This document shows positions 49,963 to 62,257 of a stretch of 64,000 nt of DNA, piece after piece; within the stretch, counting starts at the first letter, position 1, and every line of letters starts with the position of its first letter. The position numbers and the translations under genes are program-made. The notes under the pieces are model-generated. The model saw only the letters and a list, made by a program, of their open reading frames with translations, was not told the origin of the DNA and did no database searches. Source of the stretch: Dissulfurispira thermophila (GTDB taxonomy: Bacteria > Nitrospirota > Thermodesulfovibrionia > Thermodesulfovibrionales > Dissulfurispiraceae); assembly GCF_014701235.1 (NCBI RefSeq), contig NZ_AP022873.1, forward strand, positions 1,364,001-1,428,000. The letters run 5' to 3'.

Positions 49963-50652
49963 TCACGGATACACTATCAACTCCAATGCCCCTATATCCT
50001 TTATAAGAATTTTCCCATCCTTGTCATCAATAAATCCAGATTTCTTAAACTTGCTCATAATCCTAATAGCTGTTTCCACAGTCGTGCCAACCATCTCTGC
50101 AATATCCTGTTTTGTGAGTCTCATATTTATAAGTATTGAATTATCCTTTCTTTCGCCTGTCTTATCAGCAAGTTTTAGCAGCAGGGCAGCAATTCTTGAT
50201 TCCACTCTTTCGAGCGCAATGTTTTTAAGTGTATCGTGAAACTCCCGAATCCTGTCTCCTAAGTTAGCTGTCATTTCATACATAACATTTGGGAATCTGT
50301 CTATAATCTTAAGAAGATTGTGTCGTGAGATTTTAATAACATTTGAATCTTCCATTGCAACTGCATTAGCAGGATACGGAAATCCCTTTAGAACAGCAAA
50401 TCCACCAAAAAAGTCTGGGGGAGATATCAACTCTATTATTATCTCTCTACCATCAATAGACATTTTGGTTATCTTTACCTTTCCACTGATTAGTATATAA
50501 AACCAATCCGAAGGGTCTCCCTCTGAAAATATTTCTTGCTTCTTTTTAAAATTATCTCTGATTAAATATGGCTGGACTTCTTTTAGTTCTTCATCGTCAA
50601 GAGATGAAAAAATAGGTATTACCTTTAAATTTTTAAAAGTGTCATCTATCAC
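49963..50652 (-). CDS. Crp/Fnr-family transcription regulator
   Basis: The 229-residue protein has a cyclic-nucleotide-type barrel (LIRDNFKKKQEIFSEGDPSD, YILISGKVKITKMSIDGREI) and a winged helix (MRLTKQDIAEMVGTTVETAI). It has no cysteine at all, so it is not an FNR-type [4Fe-4S] sensor. The effector-pocket arginine pattern does not clearly match CRP, so the signal is unknown. It starts with GTG at 50652. Its position just upstream of the por promoter suggests possible control of that operon. Confidence 0.9.
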   Translation of the reverse strand: MIDDTFKNLKVIPIFSSLDDEELKEVQPYLIRDNFKKKQEIFSEGDPSDWFYILISGKVKITKMSIDGREIIIELISPPDFFGGFAVLKGFPYPANAVAMEDSNVIKISRHNLLKIIDRFPNVMYEMTANLGDRIREFHDTLKNIALERVESRIAALLLKLADKTGERKDNSILINMRLTKQDIAEMVGTTVETAIRIMSKFKKSGFIDDKDGKILIKDIGALELIVYP

Positions 50653-50676
50653 TTGTCACTCTTCATTGAAAAATAA

Positions 50677-50751
50677 TCGGGGCGAGCCGATTCGAACGGC
50701 CGACCTCTCGCACCCCAAGCGAGTGCGCTAACCAGACTGCGCTACGCCCCG
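50677..50751 (-). tRNA. tRNA-Pro (anticodon GGG)
   Basis: Acceptor CGGGGCG/CGCCCCG, D arm TAGCGCAGTCTGGTTAGCG, anticodon stem CTCGC/GCGAG with loop TTGGGGT (anticodon GGG), T arm CGGCCGTTCGAATCGGCT. The 3' CCA is not encoded (TTA follows the discriminator A), unlike tRNA-Gly in this window. Its first 10 bases overlap the 3' end of the merR-type gene. Confidence 0.95.
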
Positions 50752-51155
50752 AAATTATTACGAAGTATTTCCCTAAGCCTTGTTTTTACTAAAGAAATAA
50801 TAACTTTAGCATCAATACTCGATTCACGCATTTCTTCTTTTTCTATTTTATTTATATCTGCAAAAACTTCAGGGGCATGGTTTATATTGCCTCCAAGTTT
50901 ACGCCTTACACCATCAATTGTATATCTCTCATCATAAAGAAGCCTTTTAATCTGCAGTATCAAATCTATATCCTTTTTTGTATATATGCGCTGACCCGAT
51001 TTGCTCTTCTTTGGTGTAAGGAATGGAAATTCAGTTTCCCAGTATCTCAGGACATAAGACTCGATGCCAACAATCCTGCTGACTTCTCCTATTTTATAAA
51101 AAAGCTTTTCAGGAAAAAGTCTCAGAGGCTCAGGTGATTTAAGTGCATCTTGCAT
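50742..51155 (-). CDS. MerR-family transcription regulator
   Basis: The 137-residue protein has the MerR helix-turn-helix (FYKIGEVSRIVGIESYVLRY), WETEFPFLTPKKSKSGQRIY, and a helical tail. The gene order tRNA-Pro, merR, ihfA is conserved in several bacterial groups. Its last codons (NFGA) and stop fall inside the acceptor stem of tRNA-Pro, a 10-bp overlap. The effector is unknown; no Cys-based metal site is present. Confidence 0.92.
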   Translation of the reverse strand: MQDALKSPEPLRLFPEKLFYKIGEVSRIVGIESYVLRYWETEFPFLTPKKSKSGQRIYTKKDIDLILQIKRLLYDERYTIDGVRRKLGGNINHAPEVFADINKIEKEEMRESSIDAKVIISLVKTRLREILRNNFGA

Positions 51156-51171
51156 TTTTGTTTACTATATA

Positions 51172-51450
51172 CTACATCTTCTCTATGAGTTCCTTAATTT
51201 GGTCACTTGCCTTGAATGTAACAACCCTGCGAGGTGTGATCTCCACTTCTTGTTTTGTCTTTGGATTTCTCCCTATCCGTGAATTCTTTTTTCTTACATT
51301 AAAGGTTCCAAAGCCAGAAATCTTTATAGATTCACCTGCTATTAGTGTTTGCTTTATAGTGTCAAAAACAGTTTCCACCATTCCTTGCACCTCATTCTTA
51401 GGAAGTCCTACCTTCTCAAATACAAGATTTACAATATCAGCCTTTGTCAT
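51172..51450 (-). CDS. ihfA: Integration host factor, alpha subunit / HU-family protein
   Basis: The 92-residue DNA-bending protein has MTKADIVNLVFEKVGLPKNE, ISGFGTFNVRKKNSRIGRNP and TKQEVEITPRRVVTFKASDQ. The RNPKT arm tip is IHF/HU-like. IHF commonly bends DNA between activator and sigma-54 promoter, so it may serve the flagellar sigma-54 promoters. Confidence 0.93.
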   Translation of the reverse strand: MTKADIVNLVFEKVGLPKNEVQGMVETVFDTIKQTLIAGESIKISGFGTFNVRKKNSRIGRNPKTKQEVEITPRRVVTFKASDQIKELIEKM

Positions 51451-51580
51451 ATACTACCCCTTGCTATTAAGATATATTTATTTTCATTGCTAATTTTATA
51501 TTACTGTCTTGCCTAATTGTCAAGTATTTTTCATTCATGTTCACAATTCACAATGAAAAATTCTAACAATTAAACAATGC

Positions 51581-51604
51581 TTAAAGGGACAAAGTCCCTC
51601 AAAG
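51581..51604. repeat. AGGGACAAAGTCCCTCAAAG hairpin repeat, intergenic copy
   Basis: TTAAAGGGACAAAGTCCC and then TCAAAG. The copy in plsX (62210-62233) and that in the D-aminoacylase gene (59642-59668) share the core RAGGGRCAAAGYCCCT or its variant. Confidence 0.65.
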
Positions 51605-51607
51605 TTA

Positions 51608-51676
51608 AGTTAGCAGCTAGATGACAGACAGTCTGTATCCTAAAGGATCTGCGAGTTTTCGGGTGTACCTGCTATC
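51608..51676. ncRNA. Possible structured element upstream of the DksA-like gene
   Basis: TAGCAG near 51611 can pair with CTGCTA near 51670, enclosing ACAGA-CAG-TCTGT and ATCC-TAAA-GGAT hairpins and a GAGTTTTCGGGTGTACC loop. The layout could be a small structured RNA or DNA element of either strand. I do not recognise a known riboswitch. Confidence is low because only base pairing by eye supports it. Confidence 0.2.
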
Positions 51677-51703
51677 CATGATTTCGGATTATGGTCATAC
51701 TGT

Positions 51704-51732
51704 TTGACTGGGTCATGTATTTTCTGTTATCG
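51704..51732 (+). promoter_or_regulatory. Possible promoter of the DksA-like gene
   Basis: TTGACT (51704-51709), 17 bp, TTATCG (51727-51732). The -10 is weak. It is about 50 bp before the ATG at 51781. Confidence 0.4.
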
Positions 51733-51780
51733 TATTTTAACAATTTATCAAAAATCTTATATTTAAGAGGCACGAAGATT

Positions 51781-52182
51781 ATGAAAGGTAAAAATAAAAC
51801 AAAGTCAGAAAAAAAACGCTCTCTGAGAGAGGAAAAAATCCTTGAAATCAAGAAAAAGTTGATCAGACAAAAAGAAGCCCTTCTCTCAGAGGCAGGAGAT
51901 GCCTTGAATACACTACCTGATGAGACATTATTTCCTGAACTGGGAGATCAAGCATCAGCAGAGATAGACAGAAATTTTATGCTCAGGCTTAAAGGAAGGG
52001 AAAGACAACTCCTAAAGAAAATAGACGAGGCTATAGAGAAGATAGATAGCGGCACATACGGTATCTGCGAGGTGTGCGGCGAGGAGATAAATATAAAAAG
52101 ACTTGAGGCAAGACCTGTGACCACTATGTGCATTGAATGTAAAACAGAACAAGAAGAAGAAGAGAAACTCAGAGAAAGATAA
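51781..52182 (+). CDS. DksA/TraR-family zinc-finger protein
   Basis: The 133-residue protein is started at 51781 (MKGKNKTKSEKKRSLREEKI); upstream in-frame codons give a hydrophobic stretch unlike the family. It has a coiled coil (KKLIRQKEALLSEAGDALNT), the typical FPELGDQASAEIDRNF segment and the zinc finger CEVCGEEINIKRLEARPV ... CIEC. The acidic tip of E. coli DksA (DXXDXA) is here DQASAEID, so a DksA-like role at RNA polymerase is possible but not certain. Confidence 0.9.
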   Translation: MKGKNKTKSEKKRSLREEKILEIKKKLIRQKEALLSEAGDALNTLPDETLFPELGDQASAEIDRNFMLRLKGRERQLLKKIDEAIEKIDSGTYGICEVCGEEINIKRLEARPVTTMCIECKTEQEEEEKLRER

Positions 52183-52186
52183 GAAT

Positions 52187-53011
52187 TTACAATCTGTAAT
52201 CCATTACATCGAATCGTTCTTTTAAAGCCTCCCCTAATATATTGAAACAAAATGCTGTGATTGCTATTGCAAGTCCCGGGAATATTACCATCCAAGGTGC
52301 AGTAAGAATATAAGCCCTGTTAGTGCTTATCATAGAACCCCATGTTGGAGTAGGTGGCTGCGCTCCAAGTCCAAGAAAACTCAAAGTTGCCTCTGTAAGA
52401 ATAAATCCTCCGAGTTTTATTCCCATCATCACAAGACTCAGAGGGATACACAAAGGGGCAATATGCAGGACAAGTATTCTCAGATTACTGCATCCCATGG
52501 CCATGGCAGCGTCAACAAAAGGCATATTTTTAATTGTAAGCACATAACCTCTTATAAGTCTTGCAAATGATGCCCAGCCAACTGCTGATATGGCAATCAT
52601 TACAGTGTAAATACCCGGAGGCAGAATTACAGATATAGCAATAGCAAGAAGCAGTGAAGGAAAAGATAAGATAAAGTCAACCATAGACATTAGCACAGTA
52701 TCGAGCTTGCCTCCAAAATATCCTGCAAGAACACCGATACTAAAGCCAATTAAAGCAGATACAGACGCAGCAATAAATGCAACGCTTATAGACACCCTGC
52801 CTCCATAGATAACCCTCGAGAAAATATCTCTGCCTTTACTGTCAGTGCCAAATAAATGTTTTACTGATGGAGGTCTTTTTATGGCATCAAGGTCTATTTT
52901 ATTAGGGTCAGGAATGTCTAAAAAAGATGACAACATAGACATAGCAAACAATAAACCCACTATCAAAAGCGGTAACAGCAATTTCAGCGATGTCCTATTC
53001 ACTTTTTTCAT
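52187..53011 (-). CDS. Dipeptide/oligopeptide ABC transporter permease (DppC/OppC family)
   Basis: The 274-residue protein has six predicted helices, the leading NRTSLKLLLPLLIVGLLFAM, the HLFGTDSKGRDIFSRVIYGG motif and the EAA loop (DAAMAMGCSNLRILVLHIAP). It overlaps the upstream permease by 17 nt. No ATPase gene follows: the next gene is convergent. Confidence 0.95.
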   Translation of the reverse strand: MKKVNRTSLKLLLPLLIVGLLFAMSMLSSFLDIPDPNKIDLDAIKRPPSVKHLFGTDSKGRDIFSRVIYGGRVSISVAFIAASVSALIGFSIGVLAGYFGGKLDTVLMSMVDFILSFPSLLLAIAISVILPPGIYTVMIAISAVGWASFARLIRGYVLTIKNMPFVDAAMAMGCSNLRILVLHIAPLCIPLSLVMMGIKLGGFILTEATLSFLGLGAQPPTPTWGSMISTNRAYILTAPWMVIFPGLAIAITAFCFNILGEALKERFDVMDYRL

Positions 53012-53927
53012 GTAGCCTTATCCTCGGGTCAAGATAGTGATAAATTATATCTGTGATAAGATTTACAAACACAAAAACTACTGTGCCAAAAATTATGCAT
53101 CCCATTATCACTGGATAGTCCCTTTTTATTATTCCATCCATGGTGAATCTCCCTATACCATCCCAACCAAATATTGTCTCGGTGACAACAGCACCATTCA
53201 GATAACTACCAAAATCAAGACCTATTATGGTGATAATTGGAATAATGGCATTCTTTAAGACATGGACAAAGCTTATCTTAATCAATGGCAACCCTTTTGC
53301 CCTTGCTGTATTTATATAAGGCATTTTCAGAATATCTAAAACCGCTGTCCTCGTAACTCTCGATAAAGTTGCCATAGCTGGAATTGATAATACAAAGGCA
53401 GGCAAGGCCAAAAACCTTATATCTCCTGTGCCTGATGGAGGGAATAACTTCAACTTGAGACTCAAAAATAGCATTATGATTATCGCACTCCAGAATACAG
53501 GAATGCTCAGGCTGGCAATTGAGACCATATTGATAAACCTGTCTATAAATCGACCTCGTTTATAAGCAGATATAAAGCCGAGAACAATACCCGATGGAAC
53601 TGCAATAAACATAGAAGCAAATGCAAGTCTCATTGTATTGGGAAACTTCATGGCAATATCCGTGAGCACTTCCCTATTTGTGTAATAAGACCTTCCGAAA
53701 TCTCCATGTGATAAGAGCTTGAGATAACCTATATACTGCCTTATAAAACCTTTATCCATGCCTATTTCTTTTCTTATGCCTTCAATTACATCAGGATTTG
53801 CACGTTCTCCAACAAGACCTAATACAGGATCACCCGGAAGGGCATTGAGAAGAAAAAACGCAAAGAGTGTTATCCCGAACAAAAGAGGAATCAAAAGAAT
53901 AAGTCTTTTCAAGATATATTTAATCAT
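52995..53927 (-). CDS. Dipeptide/oligopeptide ABC transporter permease (DppB/OppB family)
   Basis: The 310-residue protein has LKRLILLIPLLFGITLFAFF at the N terminus, MRLAFASMFIAVPSGIVLGF, and the EAA loop (NTARAKGLPLIKISFVHVLK). Six membrane helices are predicted. It lies 26 nt after the binding-protein gene. Confidence 0.95.
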   Translation of the reverse strand: MIKYILKRLILLIPLLFGITLFAFFLLNALPGDPVLGLVGERANPDVIEGIRKEIGMDKGFIRQYIGYLKLLSHGDFGRSYYTNREVLTDIAMKFPNTMRLAFASMFIAVPSGIVLGFISAYKRGRFIDRFINMVSIASLSIPVFWSAIIIMLFLSLKLKLFPPSGTGDIRFLALPAFVLSIPAMATLSRVTRTAVLDILKMPYINTARAKGLPLIKISFVHVLKNAIIPIITIIGLDFGSYLNGAVVTETIFGWDGIGRFTMDGIIKRDYPVIMGCIIFGTVVFVFVNLITDIIYHYLDPRIRLHEKSE

Positions 53928-53952
53928 CAGCAGATTTTACACTATTTTTATG

Positions 53953-55521
53953 CTACCTTTCTATTGCTACCTCAATGCCTTTATCCATTGTGTAAATTGG
54001 ATAAACCTTATAGTCCTTTATCCATGGTTGTTTTATAAGAAAGTCTGTTCTGTGCCAGAAAGGCATCCATGGCATATCTTGGATAATAAGCTCTTCTGCC
54101 ATCTTATAAAAATTATTTCTATCATTTTCATTAATGGAATTTTGTCCTCTCTCTATTAAGGTATCCACCTCTTTGTTTATATATCTCGTCCGGTTGCCTG
54201 CAGGTCCAATATTAGATGAATGAAACAATGGAAAAAGAAAATTCTCAGGGTCAGGATAATCAGCCCACCAGCTAAGCCAGAACATGTCTGGTTCTCCTTT
54301 GTTCACTGCATCTTTGTACGCACTCCATTCCAGTTGTTTTATATTCACATTTATTCCAACTTCTGAAATATACGCCTGTATTATCTCTGCAAGGTCTATA
54401 ACATCCTGATCAGCAGTAACATACATGTTTACCTTTACCCCTGATAAGCCTTCCCTTCTAATTATTTCTTTAGATATCTCAGGATTATAATTGACACCTG
54501 CTTTTACATCCCATTTTCTCAACAAATCAGGGACAGGACCTGCTGCAAGTCTTCCCCTTCCCTCATAAAATGTTTCGAGAATTTTTTCCCTGTCTATTGC
54601 ATAAAAAACTGCCTTCCTGAGATTCAGATTGTTAAAAGGAGGTCTCGATAAATTCATGCCTAAATAATAGGTATTAAGTCCTTTGAGTGACATTATGTAT
54701 TTATTCCATTTTTTATTATTCTTAAATTTAGAATAAGCAGAGCCAGGAAGGGAAATTACATCAATATTTCCAAGCTCAAATTCAGTAATAGTGGTAAGGT
54801 CCTCAGGAATAATTTTATAAACTATGCCTCTAACCCTTGCTTTTTTATCAAAATAATCTTCATTTTTTTCAAGTACTAATTCTCTATTAGTAAGCCAGTT
54901 TTTTAAAGTAAATGGACCTGTGCCTGAGGGATGGCTCGCAAAATCATTTCCCCATTTTTCAGCTTCTTCTTTCGGGATAACATAGGCAGGTGTCATAGTG
55001 AGCATGCTTAAAAACGGTGAAAATGGCATTCTGAGTTTAATCTCAAATGTATAGTCATCAGCGACTTTAAAGCCTTTAACCTCTTTTGCCTGACCCTTCT
55101 GAAACTCCTTTGCCCCTTCAACCTTATCAAAGACCCAGGTATTTGGAGACTTTGTCTTTAACTCTAAAATCCTTTCAAACGAATATTTAAAGTCCTGTGC
55201 CTTGACTTCACGGCCATTTGAGAATCTTACTCCTTTTTTGAGAAAAAACTTATATCTCAAGCCATTCCTTGATATTTCCCATCTCTTCGCAATATCAGGA
55301 GATACCTCAAACCTATCATTTAATCTTACAAGTCCATTAAAAAGCTTTGCTGCAATTGATGCACTTGAGACATCAACAATCAAGGCAGGGTCAAGGGTTG
55401 TGGGATTTGTGTTGAGTCTGTAATAAATATAGCCTTCAAGGCGATCTGAGGATGTGCATGAAAAAAGAAATAAAATTACAGCCAATAAACAAAATAGGTG
55501 ATGAGCAAATAATCTATCCAT
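53953..55521 (-). CDS. Peptide/solute-binding lipoprotein (DppA/OppA family)
   Basis: The ~522-residue protein starts at MDRLFAHHLFCLLAVILFLF (ATG at 55521; 55530 is also possible). A lipoprotein signal ends at LFSC. The family motifs are NTNPTTLDPALIVDVSSASI, FFLKKGVRFSNGREVKAQDF and DMFWLSWWADYPDPENFLFP. It is the first gene of a binding protein-DppB-DppC operon. The substrate, peptide or other, cannot be told. Confidence 0.93.
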   Translation of the reverse strand: MDRLFAHHLFCLLAVILFLFSCTSSDRLEGYIYYRLNTNPTTLDPALIVDVSSASIAAKLFNGLVRLNDRFEVSPDIAKRWEISRNGLRYKFFLKKGVRFSNGREVKAQDFKYSFERILELKTKSPNTWVFDKVEGAKEFQKGQAKEVKGFKVADDYTFEIKLRMPFSPFLSMLTMTPAYVIPKEEAEKWGNDFASHPSGTGPFTLKNWLTNRELVLEKNEDYFDKKARVRGIVYKIIPEDLTTITEFELGNIDVISLPGSAYSKFKNNKKWNKYIMSLKGLNTYYLGMNLSRPPFNNLNLRKAVFYAIDREKILETFYEGRGRLAAGPVPDLLRKWDVKAGVNYNPEISKEIIRREGLSGVKVNMYVTADQDVIDLAEIIQAYISEVGINVNIKQLEWSAYKDAVNKGEPDMFWLSWWADYPDPENFLFPLFHSSNIGPAGNRTRYINKEVDTLIERGQNSINENDRNNFYKMAEELIIQDMPWMPFWHRTDFLIKQPWIKDYKVYPIYTMDKGIEVAIER

Positions 55522-55550
55522 TCTACCCATCACCTATAATAGCAAATACT

Positions 55551-56666
55551 TTAGAATCTCAGAAATGCTCCTATTCCTCCTGCATCCATCAGCTTCTTGC
55601 TCTCTGATACAACCTCAATCAGTGCACTCTGCTGGATTGCCTTTTCGCCTGCTAAATCAACCATATAATCAACAGCTTCCATCTTGCCTTTGCAGAATGG
55701 ACATGAATCAATCTTCTGCACGCTCATATAACCACATGCATTACAATTATATCCATTCGCCTTATAATCCTTAACAAAAACAAGTTTCATTACCCTCTGT
55801 TCCTGAAGTGCATTTATTACATTGTCCAATCCAAGCACAGCATTTTCACTCTTCATAGCTTTTGAAATAAGTCTCTCTACTGTCTCTTCTTCTTTCTTTT
55901 TTTCATATGCAGAAATAACAGGCTCGACTTTTCTTAACACCTCATCATTTTTTGCAAACATCTCAATCCTGACTGTGCCTATAACCTTATCCAGAACTGT
56001 TTTATGGAGCATCCCCTTCACCATAGAAACAGCCTCTTCAGAGCCGCCGATTACCAATCTTCCGATGTATTCACCGCTGATAAATGCATCTACTTTTTCT
56101 ACTACATCTTTAAGATGCATACCAATATGGTAATCTATATGCCTTTCATAATGATTCTGGGAAAGGGCAAACCATCCACCTTTTTTGTGTTTTCCTGGTA
56201 TATCAGGTGTATGGACCTCACCATATTCTACGATTTCTCCAAGATGGACAATGAATATCCTTGCAGATTCCTTATCAACAAGTAGAACTGCAAATCTCTG
56301 ATAGTTATCAAGAATATCCATCAAAGGCTTTGTATATGGTGTCTTATCAATAATGAGTTCATTCTTTACAGGGACATTCATATTATATTCCTTCCAGAAG
56401 GATGTGGCAGTTGAGCTGATAAGTGCCAGTCCCTTTTTGAAGATCCTCTTATTTGAGGTAACATACTTTTCTATCTTTTCAAGATCATCCTTTACTACTT
56501 TATACACTGCCTTGTCCAGAGAATCCATGGTATTCTTCATCATGTTTTTGAAATGCACCATATAATCGCCCTTTGGATTAAACATAGGGTCTACATTAAG
56601 ATAAAGACTTACAAAATATCCTCCTTCCATCGATGCAATTTCCTTTAGTTCTCTCCTGTCAAGCAT
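55551..56666 (-). CDS. Bacterial archaeo-eukaryotic release-factor-like protein (baeRF family)
   Basis: The 371-residue protein starts at the ATG at 56666 (MLDRRELKEIASMEGGYFVS) behind GGAGGATACT. It has three parts: an eRF1-like N-terminal domain (YFVSLYLNVDPMFNPKGDYM), a central domain with PGKHKKGGWFALSQNHYERH in the place of the GGQ loop, and a C-terminal domain (GRLVIGGSEEAVSMVKGMLH). It ends with a zinc ribbon CNACGYMSV...CPFCKGK. Proteins of this type are described as bacterial release-factor paralogs (baeRF) with possible roles in ribosome rescue. The function here is not known. Confidence 0.8.
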   Translation of the reverse strand: MLDRRELKEIASMEGGYFVSLYLNVDPMFNPKGDYMVHFKNMMKNTMDSLDKAVYKVVKDDLEKIEKYVTSNKRIFKKGLALISSTATSFWKEYNMNVPVKNELIIDKTPYTKPLMDILDNYQRFAVLLVDKESARIFIVHLGEIVEYGEVHTPDIPGKHKKGGWFALSQNHYERHIDYHIGMHLKDVVEKVDAFISGEYIGRLVIGGSEEAVSMVKGMLHKTVLDKVIGTVRIEMFAKNDEVLRKVEPVISAYEKKKEEETVERLISKAMKSENAVLGLDNVINALQEQRVMKLVFVKDYKANGYNCNACGYMSVQKIDSCPFCKGKMEAVDYMVDLAGEKAIQQSALIEVVSESKKLMDAGGIGAFLRF

Positions 56667-56703
56667 AGTATCCTCCTTGAGGCATAAGGGAACTGCGTCC
56701 TCC

Positions 56704-57762
56704 TTATGAAATCCCTCTGTTTTCATTAGTTTCAATATTCCGGAATATCTCCACAACCGATACAAAGATTGCCAGCACTAATGGTCCCATTACAAGCCCG
56801 ATTAACCCAAACAGCTTGATTCCTCCAAGCACACTAAAAAATATGGCAAGGATCGGCATCTTTGTCCTTCCGCCGATTATGATAGGCTTTAAAACATTAT
56901 CTATTAAGCTTATTCCAAAGACTCCAATAATTGCAAGGGCAATGCCCTTTAATACTGCACCATGGAGGAATAGATATACAGTGGCAGGTCCCCATATAGC
57001 AAATGCACCGATCAGTGGTATGAATGAAGCAATAGAGGTTGCCATTCCCCATACAACAGGGGAAGGAATTTCGAGTATATAAAAGGTAAGCCCTGCTATG
57101 AGTCCCTGCACGATAGCAACAACAACACCTCCATAAACAGTTGATATTATAATATCTCTGATTTGAGTAGCCAGTCTGTCTTTTTGCTCTTCTGAAAATG
57201 GCATGTAATCCCGAATCTTCTTCAAGAATTCAGTACCATCTTTAAGGAGAAAGAATATGGCAAATGCCATAAAAATAAAGTTTAATGCCACTGTAACCAC
57301 ATCCCCCATCCCCTTAGTAATCCTTCCGATGAGATCCTTTCCCAGGTTTGAGATGCCATCTATGATTGCCTTATCCATCTCTGCTTCTGTGATATTAAAC
57401 AAAGATGTAATCCTATCCACCATAGCCTTCATAACTGGATGCCCAAGTGCACTCTGAAGTGTCTCAAACCTTCCGCCTTCCATATAATCAGATATATGTT
57501 TCAATTCTTTTACAAGTAAAACGGATAAATAAGAAAATGGTCCGAGAATAATAATCAATATAATGCCGAGGGTGATAAAAGATGCAACTGCCGGCAATTT
57601 TATATACCTAAGCAAAAAGGCATAGACAGGATAAAAAACCAGTGAAAGGACAATAGCCCATGCTATTGGAGATAAAAATGGCTTGAGTATCAGATAACTC
57701 AAATAACCCAGCACTCCTACAAAAAATGTCAATGTTATAAAATAAAATCTATTAACTGCCAT
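56704..57762 (-). CDS. AI-2E family transporter (PerM/YdiK-like permease)
   Basis: The 352-residue integral membrane protein has about eight helices, with LILKPFLSPIAWAIVLSLVF at the N terminus, a central cytoplasmic loop and GRTKMPILAIFFSVLGGIKL with GLIGLVMGPLVLAIFVSVVE at the C terminus, typical of UPF0118/AI-2E exporters. The transported substrate is not known for most members. Confidence 0.93.
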   Translation of the reverse strand: MAVNRFYFITLTFFVGVLGYLSYLILKPFLSPIAWAIVLSLVFYPVYAFLLRYIKLPAVASFITLGIILIIILGPFSYLSVLLVKELKHISDYMEGGRFETLQSALGHPVMKAMVDRITSLFNITEAEMDKAIIDGISNLGKDLIGRITKGMGDVVTVALNFIFMAFAIFFLLKDGTEFLKKIRDYMPFSEEQKDRLATQIRDIIISTVYGGVVVAIVQGLIAGLTFYILEIPSPVVWGMATSIASFIPLIGAFAIWGPATVYLFLHGAVLKGIALAIIGVFGISLIDNVLKPIIIGGRTKMPILAIFFSVLGGIKLFGLIGLVMGPLVLAIFVSVVEIFRNIETNENRGIS

Positions 57763-57771
57763 AGCACTCCA

Positions 57772-58464
57772 TTAGCCCTTTGCCTGTTTTATAAATGCCT
57801 CAAATATGCCTAATGAAAGTTTATCATAAAACATCCGTTCTGGATGCCATTGGACACAAATAAAAAATGGATAAGCCGTTTTATAAAACCCCTCTATTAT
57901 CCCATCCTCTGATATTGCAAAGGTCTCAAAACCATCTGCAAGTCTTTTGACTGCCTGATGATGAAAAGAATTGATAAATTGGGGATTGGAGATTGCAAAT
58001 TGAGAAATATTTAAAATAGAAAAAAATGTCTCATCAATCTTTATTTTATGCTGTCCTGCCTTATGACTAATAGCCCCCTTCATCTGCATCTCTATATCCT
58101 GATAAAGACTACCTCCAAAAGCTATATTTACAAGCTGCATCCCATAACATATAGCTAAAATAGGCTTCTGCCGTTTCACTATCTCTCTTAAAAGAGCAAT
58201 CTCGAAATCACTTCTTTGTTTTTTTACAAATTTTAGTTTTTCGGGAGGCACCAAAATATCTTCGCCATAATATTCAGGCAAAATGTCATCTCCTCCTGAC
58301 AATAATAGCCCATCGATAACATCTGCAATCCAGCCAATATTATCAACTATAGGTGCCAAAATCAGAGGCATGCCGCCTGACTTATCAACAGATGAGATAT
58401 AATCATGCTTGAGTTTATAAGTATTTTCATCCATGTCAGCAGTTATGCCGATAATAGGCTTCAT
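57772..58464 (-). CDS. Gamma-glutamyl-gamma-aminobutyrate hydrolase-like (class-I GATase, PuuD family)
   Basis: The 230-residue protein starts KPIIGITADMDENTYKLKHD. It has DGLLLSGGDDILPEYYGED, the catalytic Cys106 (LAICYGMQLVN), and His207/Glu209 (VQWHPERM). Residues ~151-164 (LNISQFAISNPQFI), before the usual NSFHHQAVK, look like an insertion encoded by AATTGGGGATTGGAGATTGC repeat words (57971-58010). It probably cleaves a gamma-glutamyl amide. Confidence 0.9.
   Translation of the reverse strand: MKPIIGITADMDENTYKLKHDYISSVDKSGGMPLILAPIVDNIGWIADVIDGLLLSGGDDILPEYYGEDILVPPEKLKFVKKQRSDFEIALLREIVKRQKPILAICYGMQLVNIAFGGSLYQDIEMQMKGAISHKAGQHKIKIDETFFSILNISQFAISNPQFINSFHHQAVKRLADGFETFAISEDGIIEGFYKTAYPFFICVQWHPERMFYDKLSLGIFEAFIKQAKG
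57971..58010. repeat. GATTGGAGATTGCAAATTG-type repeat in the PuuD-like gene
   Basis: The DNA has the words AAATTGGGGATTGG, GGAGATTGC and AAATTGAG in succession. It encodes the insert LNISQFAISNPQF. Words of this kind are another degenerate dispersed repeat type. Confidence 0.5.
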
Positions 58465-58475
58465 AGTAAAACACC

Positions 58476-58620
58476 TTTAACTTGTCATTCTGATCGCAGC
58501 AAAGAATCCCGTCTTTTAAGATTGCAGACATAGTTCCAAATAGAGTGAGGGATTTGAATCTCTGAGTTCCCTTGCTTTGCTCGAGACCGCTTTGCTTCTC
58601 GCAACAGAGACTCAAAAAGT
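58476..58620. repeat. Spacer with TGTCATTCTGATCGCAGC-type repeat
   Basis: The spacer upstream of the PuuD-like gene has TTGTCATTCTGATCGCAGC, then GGATTTGAATCTCTGAGTTC and GCTCGAGACCGCTTTGCTTC, resembling degenerate and rearranged copies of the TGTCATTGCGAG repeat family. It is non-coding. Confidence 0.6.
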
Positions 58621-58668
58621 CGCAGACTTTCTGATGTGCAAATAACATCATCGGTATCATATTTTTAT

Positions 58669-60273
58669 CTATATAATCCTTCCAGAAAGGTCTCCTGTAA
58701 ATTCTCCTTCTCTCAGTGCCATTGTCCCATTAACAAAAACATATGCAATGCCTTCTGACATTTTAAATGGCTCCCTGTATGTTGACCTATCAATAATTCT
58801 TTCATAATCAAATACTGTAATATCAGCGTAAAAACCCTCTTTTATAAGTCCCCGTTTTTTAAGCCCAAAGGTTGTAGCAGATAGATATGTCATTTTTCTT
58901 ATAGCCTCTGAAAGAGACATTAAACCCTCATCCCTCACATATTTACTTATGAATTTGGGAAAACTACCAAATGCCCTTGGATGCGGCTTTCCTGTGAATG
59001 TAGGACCAGAAAAACTTCTGACAGAACTATCTGAACCTACCATTACATAAGGAAGAGATAAGAATTTTTTCAGATTATCCTCATTCATCGAAAAAAATAT
59101 TGCACCTACCCTTGCCCTCTCATCTATAAGTATGTCAATAAGGACATCCACAGGCAGTTTGCACAGTTTAACAGAAATATCAAAAATGCTCTCTCCTTCC
59201 ATCCATTTATTTTTAGACTTTGTAACAGACGAAATATAAATCCCTTTCCAGTAATCTTCACTCTTATATCCAATTTCAGCCTTGATTTTTTTTAAATCAT
59301 CTGAGTCTTTAAGTCTTCTCAACTCCTCCTCTACCCCGCCATCATATACCCACGAAGGCAGAATTGTATCAAGGTCAGTGCTGGCTGCAGTATAAGGGTA
59401 TCTGTCACATGTCAAACTTACACCTTCATCTCTTGCTTTTTCAATTAGTTTTATAACATTATCAATCTTCCACCAATTCCTTTCACCTGCTGTCTTTATA
59501 TGTGAGATATGGACATGCGCACTTGCTTCTTTTCCTATTCTTACAACCTCATCAATAGCCTCAATTAGTTCATCACTCTCACTCCTCATGTGCGAGGCAT
59601 AGATATACGAGGAGCGAGATGAAGATTTATCCACATGGGAGTTTAAGGGGCCTTGCCCCTCAAAAGTCTTGCATAATTCAATCAATTCTTCAGTAGTAGA
59701 ATAAACACCAGGGGGATAGATTAACCCCGTTGAGATACCCTTTGCACCATGCCCTAAAGCCTCTACCAAGAGTCTTTTCATCTCTTCCATCTCGTGCTTA
59801 TCAGGGGCTATATCTCTATATCCGATTATAGATGCTCGTATATTTCCATGCCCACATAATGTTGCAAAATTTATTGCAATGCCCTTATTTTTCAGAATGC
59901 TGAAATATTCTCCAAAAGTTGACCATCTCTCTTTTATCCCGAGTTCTTTGAGGTCAATTTCCCTGTGTTCAAATGCCTCTCCAAAGAGAGGTGCAGCAGA
60001 AAGTCCGCAATTGCCATTTACCTCTGTTGTAACTCCTTGAGAAAGTTTACCCTCTGCCCTTCCATCAGCAAGAAGAGTAAATTCAGAATGGGCATGTGTA
60101 TCAATAAATCCAGGAGATATAATGAGTCCCTTTGCATCAATAAATTCTCTTGCAGATATATCCTCATTGCCTATATAAACTATTCTGTCGCTACTTATTC
60201 CGACATTTGTCTCGACAGGTTCTGAACCACTGCCATCAAAAACCGTCCCATTTTTTATGAGATAATCAAGCAT
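58669..60273 (-). CDS. N-acyl-D-amino-acid deacylase (D-aminoacylase family amidohydrolase)
   Basis: The 534-residue protein has YLIKNGTVFDGSGSEPVETN, ISPGFIDTHAHSEFTLLADG (metal-binding HAH), QGVTTEVNGNCGLSAAP, GISTGLIYPPGVYSTTEELI and VGSDSSVRSF near the C terminus. Insertion ~202-222 (EGQGPLNSHVDKSSSRSSYI) before ASHMRSESDELIEAI has a segment from the GGGGCCTTGCCCC hairpin repeat (59642-59668) and repeated ACGAGGAGC words. It releases D-amino acids from N-acyl derivatives. Confidence 0.93.
   Translation of the reverse strand: MLDYLIKNGTVFDGSGSEPVETNVGISSDRIVYIGNEDISAREFIDAKGLIISPGFIDTHAHSEFTLLADGRAEGKLSQGVTTEVNGNCGLSAAPLFGEAFEHREIDLKELGIKERWSTFGEYFSILKNKGIAINFATLCGHGNIRASIIGYRDIAPDKHEMEEMKRLLVEALGHGAKGISTGLIYPPGVYSTTEELIELCKTFEGQGPLNSHVDKSSSRSSYIYASHMRSESDELIEAIDEVVRIGKEASAHVHISHIKTAGERNWWKIDNVIKLIEKARDEGVSLTCDRYPYTAASTDLDTILPSWVYDGGVEEELRRLKDSDDLKKIKAEIGYKSEDYWKGIYISSVTKSKNKWMEGESIFDISVKLCKLPVDVLIDILIDERARVGAIFFSMNEDNLKKFLSLPYVMVGSDSSVRSFSGPTFTGKPHPRAFGSFPKFISKYVRDEGLMSLSEAIRKMTYLSATTFGLKKRGLIKEGFYADITVFDYERIIDRSTYREPFKMSEGIAYVFVNGTMALREGEFTGDLSGRII
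59642..59668. repeat. GGGGCAAGGCCCCT hairpin repeat, copy in the D-aminoacylase gene
   Basis: TTTAAGGGGCCTTGCCCCTC followed by AAAAG. On the minus strand it reads TTTTGAGGGGCAAGGCCCCT and encodes FEGQGPL, very like FEGQSPS encoded by the plsX copy in the same frame. Confidence 0.6.
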
Positions 60274-60325
60274 TACAAAACCCCTTTCTACTACATTTTA
60301 ACACTTTACCACAGAGTTCATTTCC

Positions 60326-60355
60326 TTGACAAAATTTTGACTTAATCGTTATAGT
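60326..60355 (+). promoter_or_regulatory. Sigma-70 promoter of the yceD-rpmF-plsX-fabH operon
   Basis: TTGACA (60326-60331) with TATAGT (60350-60355) at 18-bp spacing, or TTATAG at 17. About 45 bp before the ATG at 60401. Confidence 0.6.
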
Positions 60356-60400
60356 AATTAACTTAAACACTATTTTTCGCAGTTTTTTCCTTTTTGACTT

Positions 60401-60919
60401 ATGAAGGTAATAATTTCAGAGATCCCTGATGAGGGATTGGAACTTGAATTAACAGAAAAGATTTCCTCTGATGAATCTATTAAGATAGTGACGCCTGTAA
60501 AGGCTTCCTTAAAGATTGATAAAAAGGGGTCAGAGGTTATCATAACAGGCAGAGCAAAAGGCACTGTTGAGCTTCAGTGCAGCAGATGCTTGAAAGCATT
60601 TGATATGGATATAGACTCTGCCATAAATGTTGTATATCATCCTGCTTCAGAAATTAACAAGGAAGAACACTATGAACTTAAAGGTGATGAACTTGACACA
60701 GGATTTTATAAAAATGATACTCTCGATACCGAGGATTTATTAAAAGAACAATTAGTTTTAAATATACCTATGAAGCCGCTTTGCTCAAATGATTGCAAAG
60801 GATTATGTCCAAAATGTGGTGCTAATTTGAATATAACTCAGTGCAACTGTCTAACATCAGAGGTAGATTCACGGCTGGCAGTGCTTAAGCAATTATTAAA
60901 TAAAAAAGAGGTAAATTAG
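60401..60919 (+). CDS. yceD: DUF177 (YceD/large ribosomal RNA accumulation) protein
   Basis: The 172-residue protein has the family start (MKVIISEIPDEGLELELTEK), VELQCSRCLKAF and a C-terminal ELVLNIPMKPLCSNDCKGLC with PKCGANLN. The four-Cys region may bind zinc. The gene before rpmF is conserved and linked to 23S rRNA accumulation in other bacteria. Confidence 0.92.
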   Translation: MKVIISEIPDEGLELELTEKISSDESIKIVTPVKASLKIDKKGSEVIITGRAKGTVELQCSRCLKAFDMDIDSAINVVYHPASEINKEEHYELKGDELDTGFYKNDTLDTEDLLKEQLVLNIPMKPLCSNDCKGLCPKCGANLNITQCNCLTSEVDSRLAVLKQLLNKKEVN

Positions 60920-60986
60920 AATAAGCTAAAAAATTAAAAATTTGGGTAAGGAACAAATTTCCTTTACACCATGAAAGGAGTAAACA

Positions 60987-61175
60987 ATGGCTAATCCAAC
61001 GCATCGCCATTCAAGATCAAGGAGAGACAAAAGAAGGGCAAACTGGAAGGGACAAATCCCAAATCTTGTGGAGTGTCCTGATTGTAAGGAATTAAAAATT
61101 CCACACAGGGTGTGCACTCATTGCGGCTCTTATAATGGCAAAAAGATCCTTGAGGTAGTATCAAAAGAATTATGA
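60987..61175 (+). CDS. rpmF: 50S ribosomal protein L32
   Basis: The 62-residue protein starts MANPTHRHSRSRRDKRRAN and has a four-cysteine zinc ribbon (CPDCKELKIPHRVCTHCG). AAAGGAG precedes the ATG. The Cys-containing form of L32 is present. Confidence 0.97.
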   Translation: MANPTHRHSRSRRDKRRANWKGQIPNLVECPDCKELKIPHRVCTHCGSYNGKKILEVVSKEL

Positions 61176-62257
61176 GGATCGCCCTCGATGCAATGGGTGG
61201 AGACTTTGCACCCGATGTAACAATAGCAGGGGCATTAGAGGCAGTAAGTGAGTATGATGATATTCATGTGATACTCACAGGAGACAGACAGAAAATAACC
61301 GCATCTCTTCAGAACTGGCGATACCCCACTGAAAAAATATCCATTTATCATGCATCAGAGGTTGTCGAGATGCATGAATCGCCTTCCTTTGCACTCAGAA
61401 GAAAAAAGGATTCATCTATACGAAAGGCAGTGGATCTGGTAAAAAATCATGATGCAGATGCTGCAGTAAGTGCCGGGCATTCAGGTGTTGCAATGGCAAC
61501 CGCCTTGTTTGTACTCGGAAAACTACCTAATGTTGACAGACCCGCAATAGCAACTATAATGCCATCATTAGCAGGACACTTTCTTCTCATAGATGCCGGG
61601 GCAAATGTTGACTGCAAACCTGAGAATCTTCTTGAATTTGCTTATATGGGAAATGCCTATTATAGAGCTATCTTTAACATAGAGTCTCCAAGAATTGCCT
61701 TGCTAAGTATCGGAGAAGAGGATACCAAAGGTAATGAGTTGACAAAAGAGACATTCAAGCTTTTAAAAAACTCCAACCTGAATTTTATAGGCAATATAGA
61801 AGGGAAAGACATATTTTCAGGAAATGCAGATGTAATAGTCTGCGATGGTTTTATAGGGAATATTGTATTAAAGGTAAGCGAAGGACTTGCTGAAACCATA
61901 ATGAAGATGCTAAAACACGAAATTGCAAATGTAACTACAGGCAAACTTGGCTATATGATGATAAAGCCTGCTATAAAGAATTTCAAAAAAAGAACAGACT
62001 ACTCCGAATACGGTGGGGCACCTCTTCTGGGCATAAATGGTACATGCATCATTAGCCATGGCCGTTCTTCTGCAAGGGCTATAAAGAATGCTATACGCGT
62101 TGCATCTGATATGGCAAGCAAAAAAGTGCACGAAATTATTGCAAATGAATTAAAAGGACAAAACCACTTTAATTCAGCAGTAAAAATTGAATTTAATTCT
62201 AACAAGGAGTTTGAGGGACAAAGCCCCTCAAAGGATGTATCGTATGTTAAGGGCTAA
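61172..62257 (+). CDS. plsX: Phosphate acyltransferase PlsX
   Basis: PlsX makes acyl-phosphate from acyl-ACP for phospholipid synthesis. The 361-residue protein has IALDAMGGDFAPDVTIAGAL, SAGHSGVAMATALFVLGKLP, DAGANVDCKPENLLEFAYMG and APLLGINGTCIISHGRSSAR. The last ~18 residues (NKEFEGQSPSKDVSYVKG) are encoded by the GAGGGACAAAGCCCCTC repeat and look like an extension. The start overlaps rpmF stop by ATGA. Confidence 0.96.
   Translation: MRIALDAMGGDFAPDVTIAGALEAVSEYDDIHVILTGDRQKITASLQNWRYPTEKISIYHASEVVEMHESPSFALRRKKDSSIRKAVDLVKNHDADAAVSAGHSGVAMATALFVLGKLPNVDRPAIATIMPSLAGHFLLIDAGANVDCKPENLLEFAYMGNAYYRAIFNIESPRIALLSIGEEDTKGNELTKETFKLLKNSNLNFIGNIEGKDIFSGNADVIVCDGFIGNIVLKVSEGLAETIMKMLKHEIANVTTGKLGYMMIKPAIKNFKKRTDYSEYGGAPLLGINGTCIISHGRSSARAIKNAIRVASDMASKKVHEIIANELKGQNHFNSAVKIEFNSNKEFEGQSPSKDVSYVKG
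62210..62233. repeat. GAGGGACAAAGCCCCTC hairpin repeat, plsX copy
   Basis: TTTGAGGGACAAAGCCCCTC followed by AAAG. It encodes FEGQSPSK at the PlsX C terminus. It ends 11 bases before the fabH ATG at 62244, so its AAAGGA end provides the fabH Shine-Dalgarno. Confidence 0.65.

What the first reader, a model, noticed from the sequence alone, without database searches (positions are those of the whole stretch)
55551..56666. baeRF-like protein with GGW loop and zinc ribbon
The KKGGWFALSQNHYERH segment lies where eRF1/Vms1-type proteins have their GGQ loop, and the C-terminal zinc ribbon is like that of archaeal release factors. It may act in ribosome rescue. The family is almost unstudied.
Basis: partly seen in the sequence, partly recalled or inferred. 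Interest (0 to 1): 0.5.

Follow-up and report, generated by a model that had tools for sequence, protein, structure and literature searches.

The report
Balon-like ribosome factor with GGW loop
This bacterial gene encodes a relative of archaeal release factors in which the glutamine that cuts the finished protein free is replaced by a conserved tryptophan, and it most likely plugs and parks idle ribosomes during stress rather than releasing proteins.

Summary
In detail: a 371-aa minus-strand gene at exactly 55551-56666, clearly Pfam baeRF_family10 (E 1e-29), with an aeRF1-type three-domain predicted fold (best PDB match hibernation factor Balon MSMEG_1130, Z 23.3) and a four-Cys zinc ribbon. 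The GGW sits at the GGQ site of aRF1 (PGKHKMGGQ---SQRRYER against PGKHKKGGWFALSQNHYERH).

The rescue idea is only partly supported. In 59 profile-found Nitrospirota proteins Trp is kept in 57, the nearby Gln in 25; that argues against a Gln-dependent peptidyl-tRNA hydrolase, which a 2019 paper left open for family 10.

MSMEG_1130, a proven A-site hibernation factor, is itself family 10. Rv2629, another, has AGW at the same place. Of 11 non-Nitrospirota relatives, 8 have stress-type neighbours (dnaJ, MerR, clp, sigma, HPFcold). The window's own clade has a different partner: an AI-2E transporter gene directly upstream (56 of 67 loci).

Best reading: a zinc-ribbon GGW variant of the Balon group that occupies the A site without hydrolysis. 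Ribosome binding is inferred. Curated Balon models are hit only far under their cut-offs. New variant of a known kind, moderate interest.

The parts
55551..56666 (-). baeRF_family10 / Balon-like gene, 371 aa, ATG start
56346..56666 (-). N-terminal domain (res 1-107); aligns with the aRF1 decoding domain, NIKS motif absent
55920..56339 (-). middle (eRF1_2-like) domain, Pfam baeRF_family10 res 110-249
56139..56198 (-). loop PGKHKKGGWFALSQNHYERH (res 157-176) at the GGQ site of aRF1; low-confidence stretch of the model
56172..56174 (-). codon of Trp165, at the position of the catalytic Gln of GGQ
55554..55898 (-). C-terminal Pelota/eRF1_3-like domain (res 257-371)
55677..55754 (-). zinc ribbon (res 305-330), Cys 308/311/322/325, aligned with a Cys-free stretch of the C-domain of MSMEG_1130
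56704..57762 (-). AI-2E family transporter gene directly upstream; frequent partner in Nitrospirota
57772..58464 (-). Peptidase C26 / class I GATase, upstream in the same cluster
58669..60273 (-). Amidohydrolase (reads like an N-acyl-D-amino-acid deacylase; that name is recalled)
53953..55533 (-). Solute-binding protein (SBP_bac_5), directly downstream
52187..53927 (-). Two ABC permease genes that follow (52995-53927 and 52187-53011)

Best explanation
A stress- or starvation-related factor of the Balon kind. Its three domains place it in the ribosomal A site as aRF1 and Balon do. The N-domain faces the decoding centre without a NIKS motif. The GGW loop points at the peptidyl-transferase centre, where Trp165 replaces the hydrolysing Gln, so it fills or anchors the loop instead of activating water. 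The zinc ribbon stands in the C-domain where Balon-type proteins have an insert, taken here to be the EF-Tu-contacting hairpin. The outcome would be reversible silencing of the ribosome, not peptide release. Shown here by computation: family, predicted fold, loop position, Trp kept and Gln not, zinc ribbon, gene context. Inferred: ribosome binding, silencing, EF-Tu contact.
For: Structure: top matches are Balon MSMEG_1130 (Foldseek E 2.9e-25; VIA Z 23.3, rmsd 8.6, 359 aligned), ahead of archaeal aRF1 4af1 (Z 18.7). Profile search of the PDB: MSMEG_1130 9.7e-22, 4af1 2.9e-19. MSMEG_1130 is itself Pfam baeRF_family10 at 5e-36; it and Rv2629 bind the A site and cut in-vitro translation 15-fold (passages of PMC10901736). 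Trp 57 of 59, Gln 25 of 59 (window and L001 counted once). On a tree built without the loop columns, 37 Nitrospirota representatives (26 profile-found, 11 pattern-found) show 0 changes of Trp and at least 6 of Gln. Gly-Trp at the same place in Rv2629 (two alignments) and GGWSQKRYER in a Nonomuraea protein whose best NCBIfam match is the Rv2629 family. Stress-type neighbours in 8 of 11 non-Nitrospirota loci: DnaJ, MerR, Clp, sigma, Usp, HPFcold.
Against: MSMEG_1130 has neither GGW nor zinc-ribbon Cys. The curated NCBIfam hibernation models are hit far under their cut-offs (94.5 of 480, 57.2 of 330, 49.9 of 320 bits), and aRF1 is hit almost as well (91.7 of 234.7). Whole-chain rmsd to Balon is high (8.6 A), and the loop is the weakest part of the model. 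The window clade sits with a transporter and solute-uptake genes, not with RaiA or heat-shock genes. 25 of 59 keep a Gln five residues after the Trp, the window protein among them. In the Chloroflexota sample the signature is not general: GGW in 18 of 37, Trp in 20. The gene is patchy: 37 of 60 relatives and 56 of 198 genomes of the phylum have a family match.
Confidence: 0.7

Rival explanations
1. Peptidyl-tRNA hydrolase for ribosome rescue: the SQ after GGW acts like the GGxSQ Gln of the VLRF1 families.
For: Burroughs and Aravind 2019 single out family 10 as having a well-conserved Gln and possibly being active (passages of PMC6514570). Several short-loop relatives read GGWSQ or GGWAQ. acVLRF1 is hit at 5e-8, over its Pfam cut-off.
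Against: Gln kept in only 25 of 59 Nitrospirota proteins, Glu in 30. In 28 of 57 with the Trp there is no Gln in the 8 residues after it. At least 6 changes on the tree. The 3-residue insert moves the Gln further from the GG. The NCBIfam acVLRF1 model is hit at 22.6 of 125 bits. The genome has tmRNA and SmpB.
Confidence: 0.12
2. Non-catalytic rescue or splitting factor, Pelota-like: binds stalled ribosomes with an empty A site and helps to take them apart.
For: Same superfamily and fold as Pelota/Dom34, with the catalytic Gln replaced as in Dom34.
Against: Z is higher to Balon and aRF1 (23.3 and 18.7) than to any Pelota in the list of 50 (13.7 and less). Bacteria have no known Hbs1/ABCE1 partner (recalled). 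The contexts outside Nitrospirota are mostly stress clusters, with HPFcold in one.
Confidence: 0.1
3. Ribosome-bound factor coupled to membrane transport: in Nitrospirota it works with the AI-2E transporter and the uptake genes, linking nutrient supply to translation.
For: AI-2E gene directly upstream on the same strand in 56 of 67 loci with at least 1.1 kb upstream; in 38 the AI-2E match ends within 4 bases of the start codon or past it; 41-89% AI-2E identity. Solute-binding and permease genes follow in the window.
Against: The loci share descent. In 7 of the other 11 loci the GATase is directly upstream with no AI-2E match between, and in 4 neither was found there. No AI-2E match in the 11 non-Nitrospirota loci. 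A shared operon does not show a shared mechanism.
Confidence: 0.05

Closest known systems
Balon MSMEG_1130 (PDB 8v9j/8v9l)
   Same: Same Pfam family (baeRF_family10), same three domains, best fold and profile match, no GGQ or NIKS
   Different: No GGW, no zinc-ribbon Cys, 17-18% identity in the structural alignment
Balon Rv2629 (PDB 8v9k)
   Same: Gly-Trp at the same loop position, same domain order
   Different: Best Pfam match baeRF_family2, loop AGWNGYGDFQH, no zinc-ribbon Cys in the stretch seen
Balon of Psychrobacter urativorans (PDB 8rd8/8rdv/8rdw)
   Same: Same fold (Z about 18)
   Different: Weak sequence match (profile E 0.003); HP motif and bL27 trap not identified here
Archaeal aRF1 (PDB 4af1, 3agk)
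   Same: PGK(H/Q)..GG loop context, C-terminal LR(F/Y); 4af1 has a Cys-bearing stretch (CPND ... CSDC) aligned with the zinc ribbon
   Different: GGQ replaced by GGW plus a 3-residue insert; NIKS absent
acVLRF1 / Vms1-like release factors
   Same: GGxSQ-like loop in short-loop relatives; Pfam acVLRF1 match at 5e-8
   Different: Stop-codon-type N-domain present here (absent in acVLRF1 by PMC6514570); Gln not conserved

Membership tests
Pfam baeRF_family10 (PF18854) | profile score over the curated cut-off | tested here: met
   104.1 against 27.1 bits; all 66 members of A2 match at E <= 0.01
aeRF1 superfamily | N - RNase H-like middle - Pelota C domain order | tested here: met
   model matches eRF1, aRF1 and Balon from residue 1-6 to 371
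classical aRF1/eRF1 | GGQ with catalytic Gln | tested here: not met
   Trp165 at the Gln position
classical aRF1/eRF1 | NIKS motif in the N-domain | tested here: not met
   NIKS of 4af1 aligns with a non-NIKS stretch of the profile; no NIKS in the sequence
classical aRF1/eRF1 | TIGR03676 curated cut-off | tested here: not met
   91.7 against 234.7 bits
Balon hibernation factors | aeRF1-like fold without GGQ and NIKS | tested here: met
   criterion from PMC10901736 passages
Balon hibernation factors | NCBIfam equivalog cut-offs (MSMEG_1130, Rv2629, AOC03_06830 families) | tested here: not met
   94.5/480, 49.9/320, 57.2/330 bits; so it is not a member of these three curated subfamilies
Balon hibernation factors | beta-hairpin insert in the C-domain that contacts EF-Tu | tested here: inconclusive
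   a four-Cys zinc ribbon aligns with a Cys-free stretch of MSMEG_1130; that this stretch is the hairpin was not checked on coordinates
Balon hibernation factors | HP motif at the decoding centre, bL27 trap | tested here: inconclusive
   no residue-level alignment to P. urativorans Balon in these regions was obtained
Balon hibernation factors | A-site binding and translation inhibition | not testable with these tools
   needs cryo-EM and in-vitro translation
VLRF1 peptidyl hydrolases | conserved Gln in a GGxSQ or GxuQ loop | tested here: not met
   Gln in 25 of 59 Nitrospirota proteins; the window protein itself has one
VLRF1 peptidyl hydrolases | NCBIfam acVLRF1 cut-off | tested here: not met
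   22.6 against 125 bits, though the Pfam acVLRF1 cut-off is passed, 33.6 against 27.1

The most novel reading that the evidence does not exclude
GGW is an 'anti-GGQ': a tryptophan plug that replaced the catalytic glutamine when a release factor was turned into a ribosome-parking factor. It was kept in zinc-ribbon forms (Nitrospirota, part of Chloroflexota, others) and in the Rv2629 lineage and lost in MSMEG_1130. The Trp enters the A-site cleft of the peptidyl-transferase centre, keeps water out and protects peptidyl-tRNA, while the zinc ribbon is the older form of Balon's EF-Tu/stalk hook. In Nitrospirota the factor is tied to a transporter operon, so nutrient uptake and ribosome parking are switched together.
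Probability: 0.3. Interest if true: 0.65.

Novelty: new variant of a known kind. Interest (0 to 1): 0.42.

Why it matters
If right, one substitution site (GGQ to GGW) marks the change from release factor to hibernation factor, and the zinc-ribbon proteins are an intermediate form between archaeal aRF1 and Balon. It would also speak against catalysis for family 10 in Nitrospirota, where the 2019 survey thought a peptidyl hydrolase possible, and give a simple sequence sign for parked-ribosome factors.

Tried and rejected
Gln170 as a conserved catalytic residue: rejected on counts. A known structured RNA near the gene: no Rfam match at gathering score in 50000-62000. A dedicated promoter before the gene: the scan gave 32 sites in 51600-60600 against 30.2 expected, so it says nothing. 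Plasmid carriage: three Azospirillum records matched the window protein. The Azospirillum brasilense protein has the zinc ribbon but no GGW loop, in a cluster with sigma-factor, DnaJ/CbpM and universal stress protein genes. Neighbour test with the window genome's own HPF: the script took the wrong (longest) ORF from L199/L200; the L199 one reads like RpoN (recalled), so the 'HPFown' rows are void. That the genome has two S30AE-domain matches rests alone.

Limits of the counts. The 80 loci were found with the pattern PG[KR]H[KR][KQR][GA]GW, so Trp is fixed there by construction; the 57 of 59 comes from profile-found loci. Of 67 Nitrospirota loci, eight weak partial hits (L178-L185) did not match the A2 profile at 1e-5 and were dropped; 59 remain with the window counted once. 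Two of the 59 lack the Trp: L011 (EGD) and L166 (gap); one lacks the Cys (L172, a short ORF). The 28 of 57 without Gln comes from a script rule of 8 residues after the Trp. Tree rows: ORF matches of at least 300 aa, under 72% identity to each other. In the Chloroflexota sample (38 of 151 genomes with a family match) 37 fetched rows matched A2 (L157, L160, L192, L193, L195 did not; L125 was grouped with the scan loci): GGW 18, any Trp 20, Gln 17, four Cys 14. In the phylum sample around L112, 5 of 249 genomes had a match; of the four fetched besides L128, two have GGW and four Cys. On the tree MSMEG_1130 is a long branch whose place is unsure. The 11 non-Nitrospirota loci are pattern-found; L112 and L123 have other neighbours, L113's were not scanned.

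Full report
What is there. A good ribosome-binding site lies before the ATG, and the near relatives L006 and L010 start at the same Met. The gene upstream (AI-2E transporter) ends at 56704 and the gene downstream (solute-binding protein) starts at 55533, so it sits inside a close-packed minus-strand cluster: amidohydrolase, peptidase C26/GATase, AI-2E transporter, this gene, binding protein, two permeases. The nearest loci in named records are an uncultured bacterium (90%) and a Thermodesulfovibrionales bacterium (89%), followed mostly by Nitrospirota records, so the window is from that group. The genome has one family-10 match. The gene is patchy: 37 of 60 relatives and 56 of 198 genomes sampled in the phylum have a match, the latter with eight weak partial ones.

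Family and fold. Pfam baeRF_family10 matches with 104.1 bits against a cut-off of 27.1. NCBIfam's nearest models are the MSMEG_1130 ribosome hibernation factor family (6.4e-27) and aRF1 (4.3e-26), both far under their cut-offs. An AlphaFold2 model from a 66-row alignment has mean pLDDT 88.8 and pTM 0.77; residues 151-180 are much weaker (block means 53-68). Foldseek puts Balon MSMEG_1130 first (2.9e-25), then archaeal aRF1 4af1 (7.2e-21) and P. urativorans Balon (3.2e-20). VIA-align gives Z 23.3 (rmsd 8.6, 359 aligned), 18.7 (12.4, 354) and 18.1 (8.9, 332) for these. The high rmsd over whole chains means that the arrangement of the domains is not fixed by the model.

The loop. A profile of the 66 rows aligns A. 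pernix aRF1 PGKHKMGGQ---SQRRYER with the family's PGkHkkGGWfalsqkryeRh: Trp165 stands at the catalytic Gln, and a three-residue insert follows. Relatives in Chloroflexota, Cloacimonadota and Tectomicrobia mostly read GGW[SA][QA]xR[YF]QRH or similar without the insert. Burroughs and Aravind (PMC6514570; passages seen) wrote that family 10 keeps a well-conserved Gln and could be an active hydrolase. In Nitrospirota that does not hold: among 59 profile-found proteins Trp is kept in 57 and all four zinc-ribbon Cys in 58, but position 170 is Gln in 25, Glu in 30, Gly in 2, Lys in 1 and Asp in 1. In 28 of the 57 with the Trp there is no Gln in the eight residues after it. On a tree built without the loop columns, Trp changes 0 times and Gln at least 6 times among 37 representatives, of which 26 are profile-found and 11 came from a pattern that requires the Trp. 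Selection appears to act on the Trp, not on the Gln. In Chloroflexota the picture is mixed: GGW in 18 of 37 profile-matched rows, four Cys in 14.

Link to proven hibernation factors. MSMEG_1130 is itself a baeRF_family10 protein (124.5 bits); Rv2629 is baeRF_family2 with a second match to family 10 (40.3 bits). Both bind the A site of the M. smegmatis ribosome and lower in-vitro translation 15-fold (passages and section 6 of PMC10901736). Rv2629 reads HKPVTAGWNGYGDFQH; its GW aligns with the GGW of a Chloroflexota relative by phmmer and with that of the window family by hhalign (probability 97.1). MSMEG_1130 lacks it. A Nonomuraea protein, best NCBIfam match Rv2629 family with 210 bits (cut-off 320), reads GGWSQKRYER. 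The words GGW and tryptophan do not occur in the main text of these two papers, and none of the 8 papers that hold two of 'GGW motif', 'release factor' and 'Balon' holds the first (listing); supplements were not read.

Context. In Nitrospirota the AI-2E gene lies directly upstream on the same strand in 56 of 67 loci with at least 1.1 kb upstream; in 7 of the other 11 the GATase lies there instead. These loci share descent. Among 11 non-Nitrospirota loci 8 have stress-type neighbours: DnaJ and a MerR-type regulator (HspR-like is my reading) in L116, L117, L118 and L122, DnaJ in L119, a Clp ATPase directly downstream in L118 and L119 and 2.4 kb off in L122, sigma factor with Usp in L120, sigma factor in L121, and in L124 an S30AE+cold-shock protein 9 bases downstream. 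That last domain pair is HPFcold, solved on the Coxiella ribosome as a hibernation factor (passages of PMC13392368). L112 and L123 have other neighbours; L113's were not scanned. The Balon paper reports the same kinds of neighbours: RaiA, DnaJ, DnaK, sigma factors (section 6). One paper in the held library joins 'AI-2E family transporter' with ribosome hibernation, on P. aeruginosa biofilm, seen only as a listing. The one paper holding both Nitrospirota and hibernation factor is the HPFcold paper.

How it most likely works. Inferred from the above: an A-site occupant without stop-codon reading (no NIKS) and without Gln catalysis, its Trp loop at the peptidyl-transferase centre, its zinc ribbon at a C-domain site that may correspond to Balon's EF-Tu-contacting hairpin (sequence alignment only), used under starvation or stress. 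The genome also has tmRNA, SmpB and two S30AE-domain matches, so ordinary rescue and hibernation systems are present beside it.

Verdict. The rescue/hydrolase idea is less likely than ribosome parking. It is a new variant (zinc ribbon plus GGW plus insert) of a known kind, with a testable idea about how release factors became hibernation factors.

Noticed in passing
L007, L020, L031, L032 and other Thermodesulfovibrio-type loci: Zinc ribbon with extra cysteines (CxxC ... CCxxCxxC), unlike the four-Cys form of the window.
   Followed up: no
L011, L174, L139: Inserts (up to about 22 residues) in or before the GGW loop in single relatives.
   Followed up: no
L165, L167: Loop reads DVW instead of GGW: glycines lost, tryptophan kept.
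   Followed up: no
L178-L185: Weak partial baeRF10 hits in short ORFs of one genus group (g75) of the phylum; possibly another baeRF family.
   Followed up: no
L210 2872-4101: Azospirillum brasilense plasmid homologue keeps the zinc ribbon but lacks the GGW loop, in a cluster with sigma-factor, DnaJ/CbpM, Usp and DegQ genes.
   Followed up: partly
window 51691-52182: DksA-like gene converges on the end of the cluster; 18 of the 80 scan loci have a tblastn match to it.
   Followed up: partly
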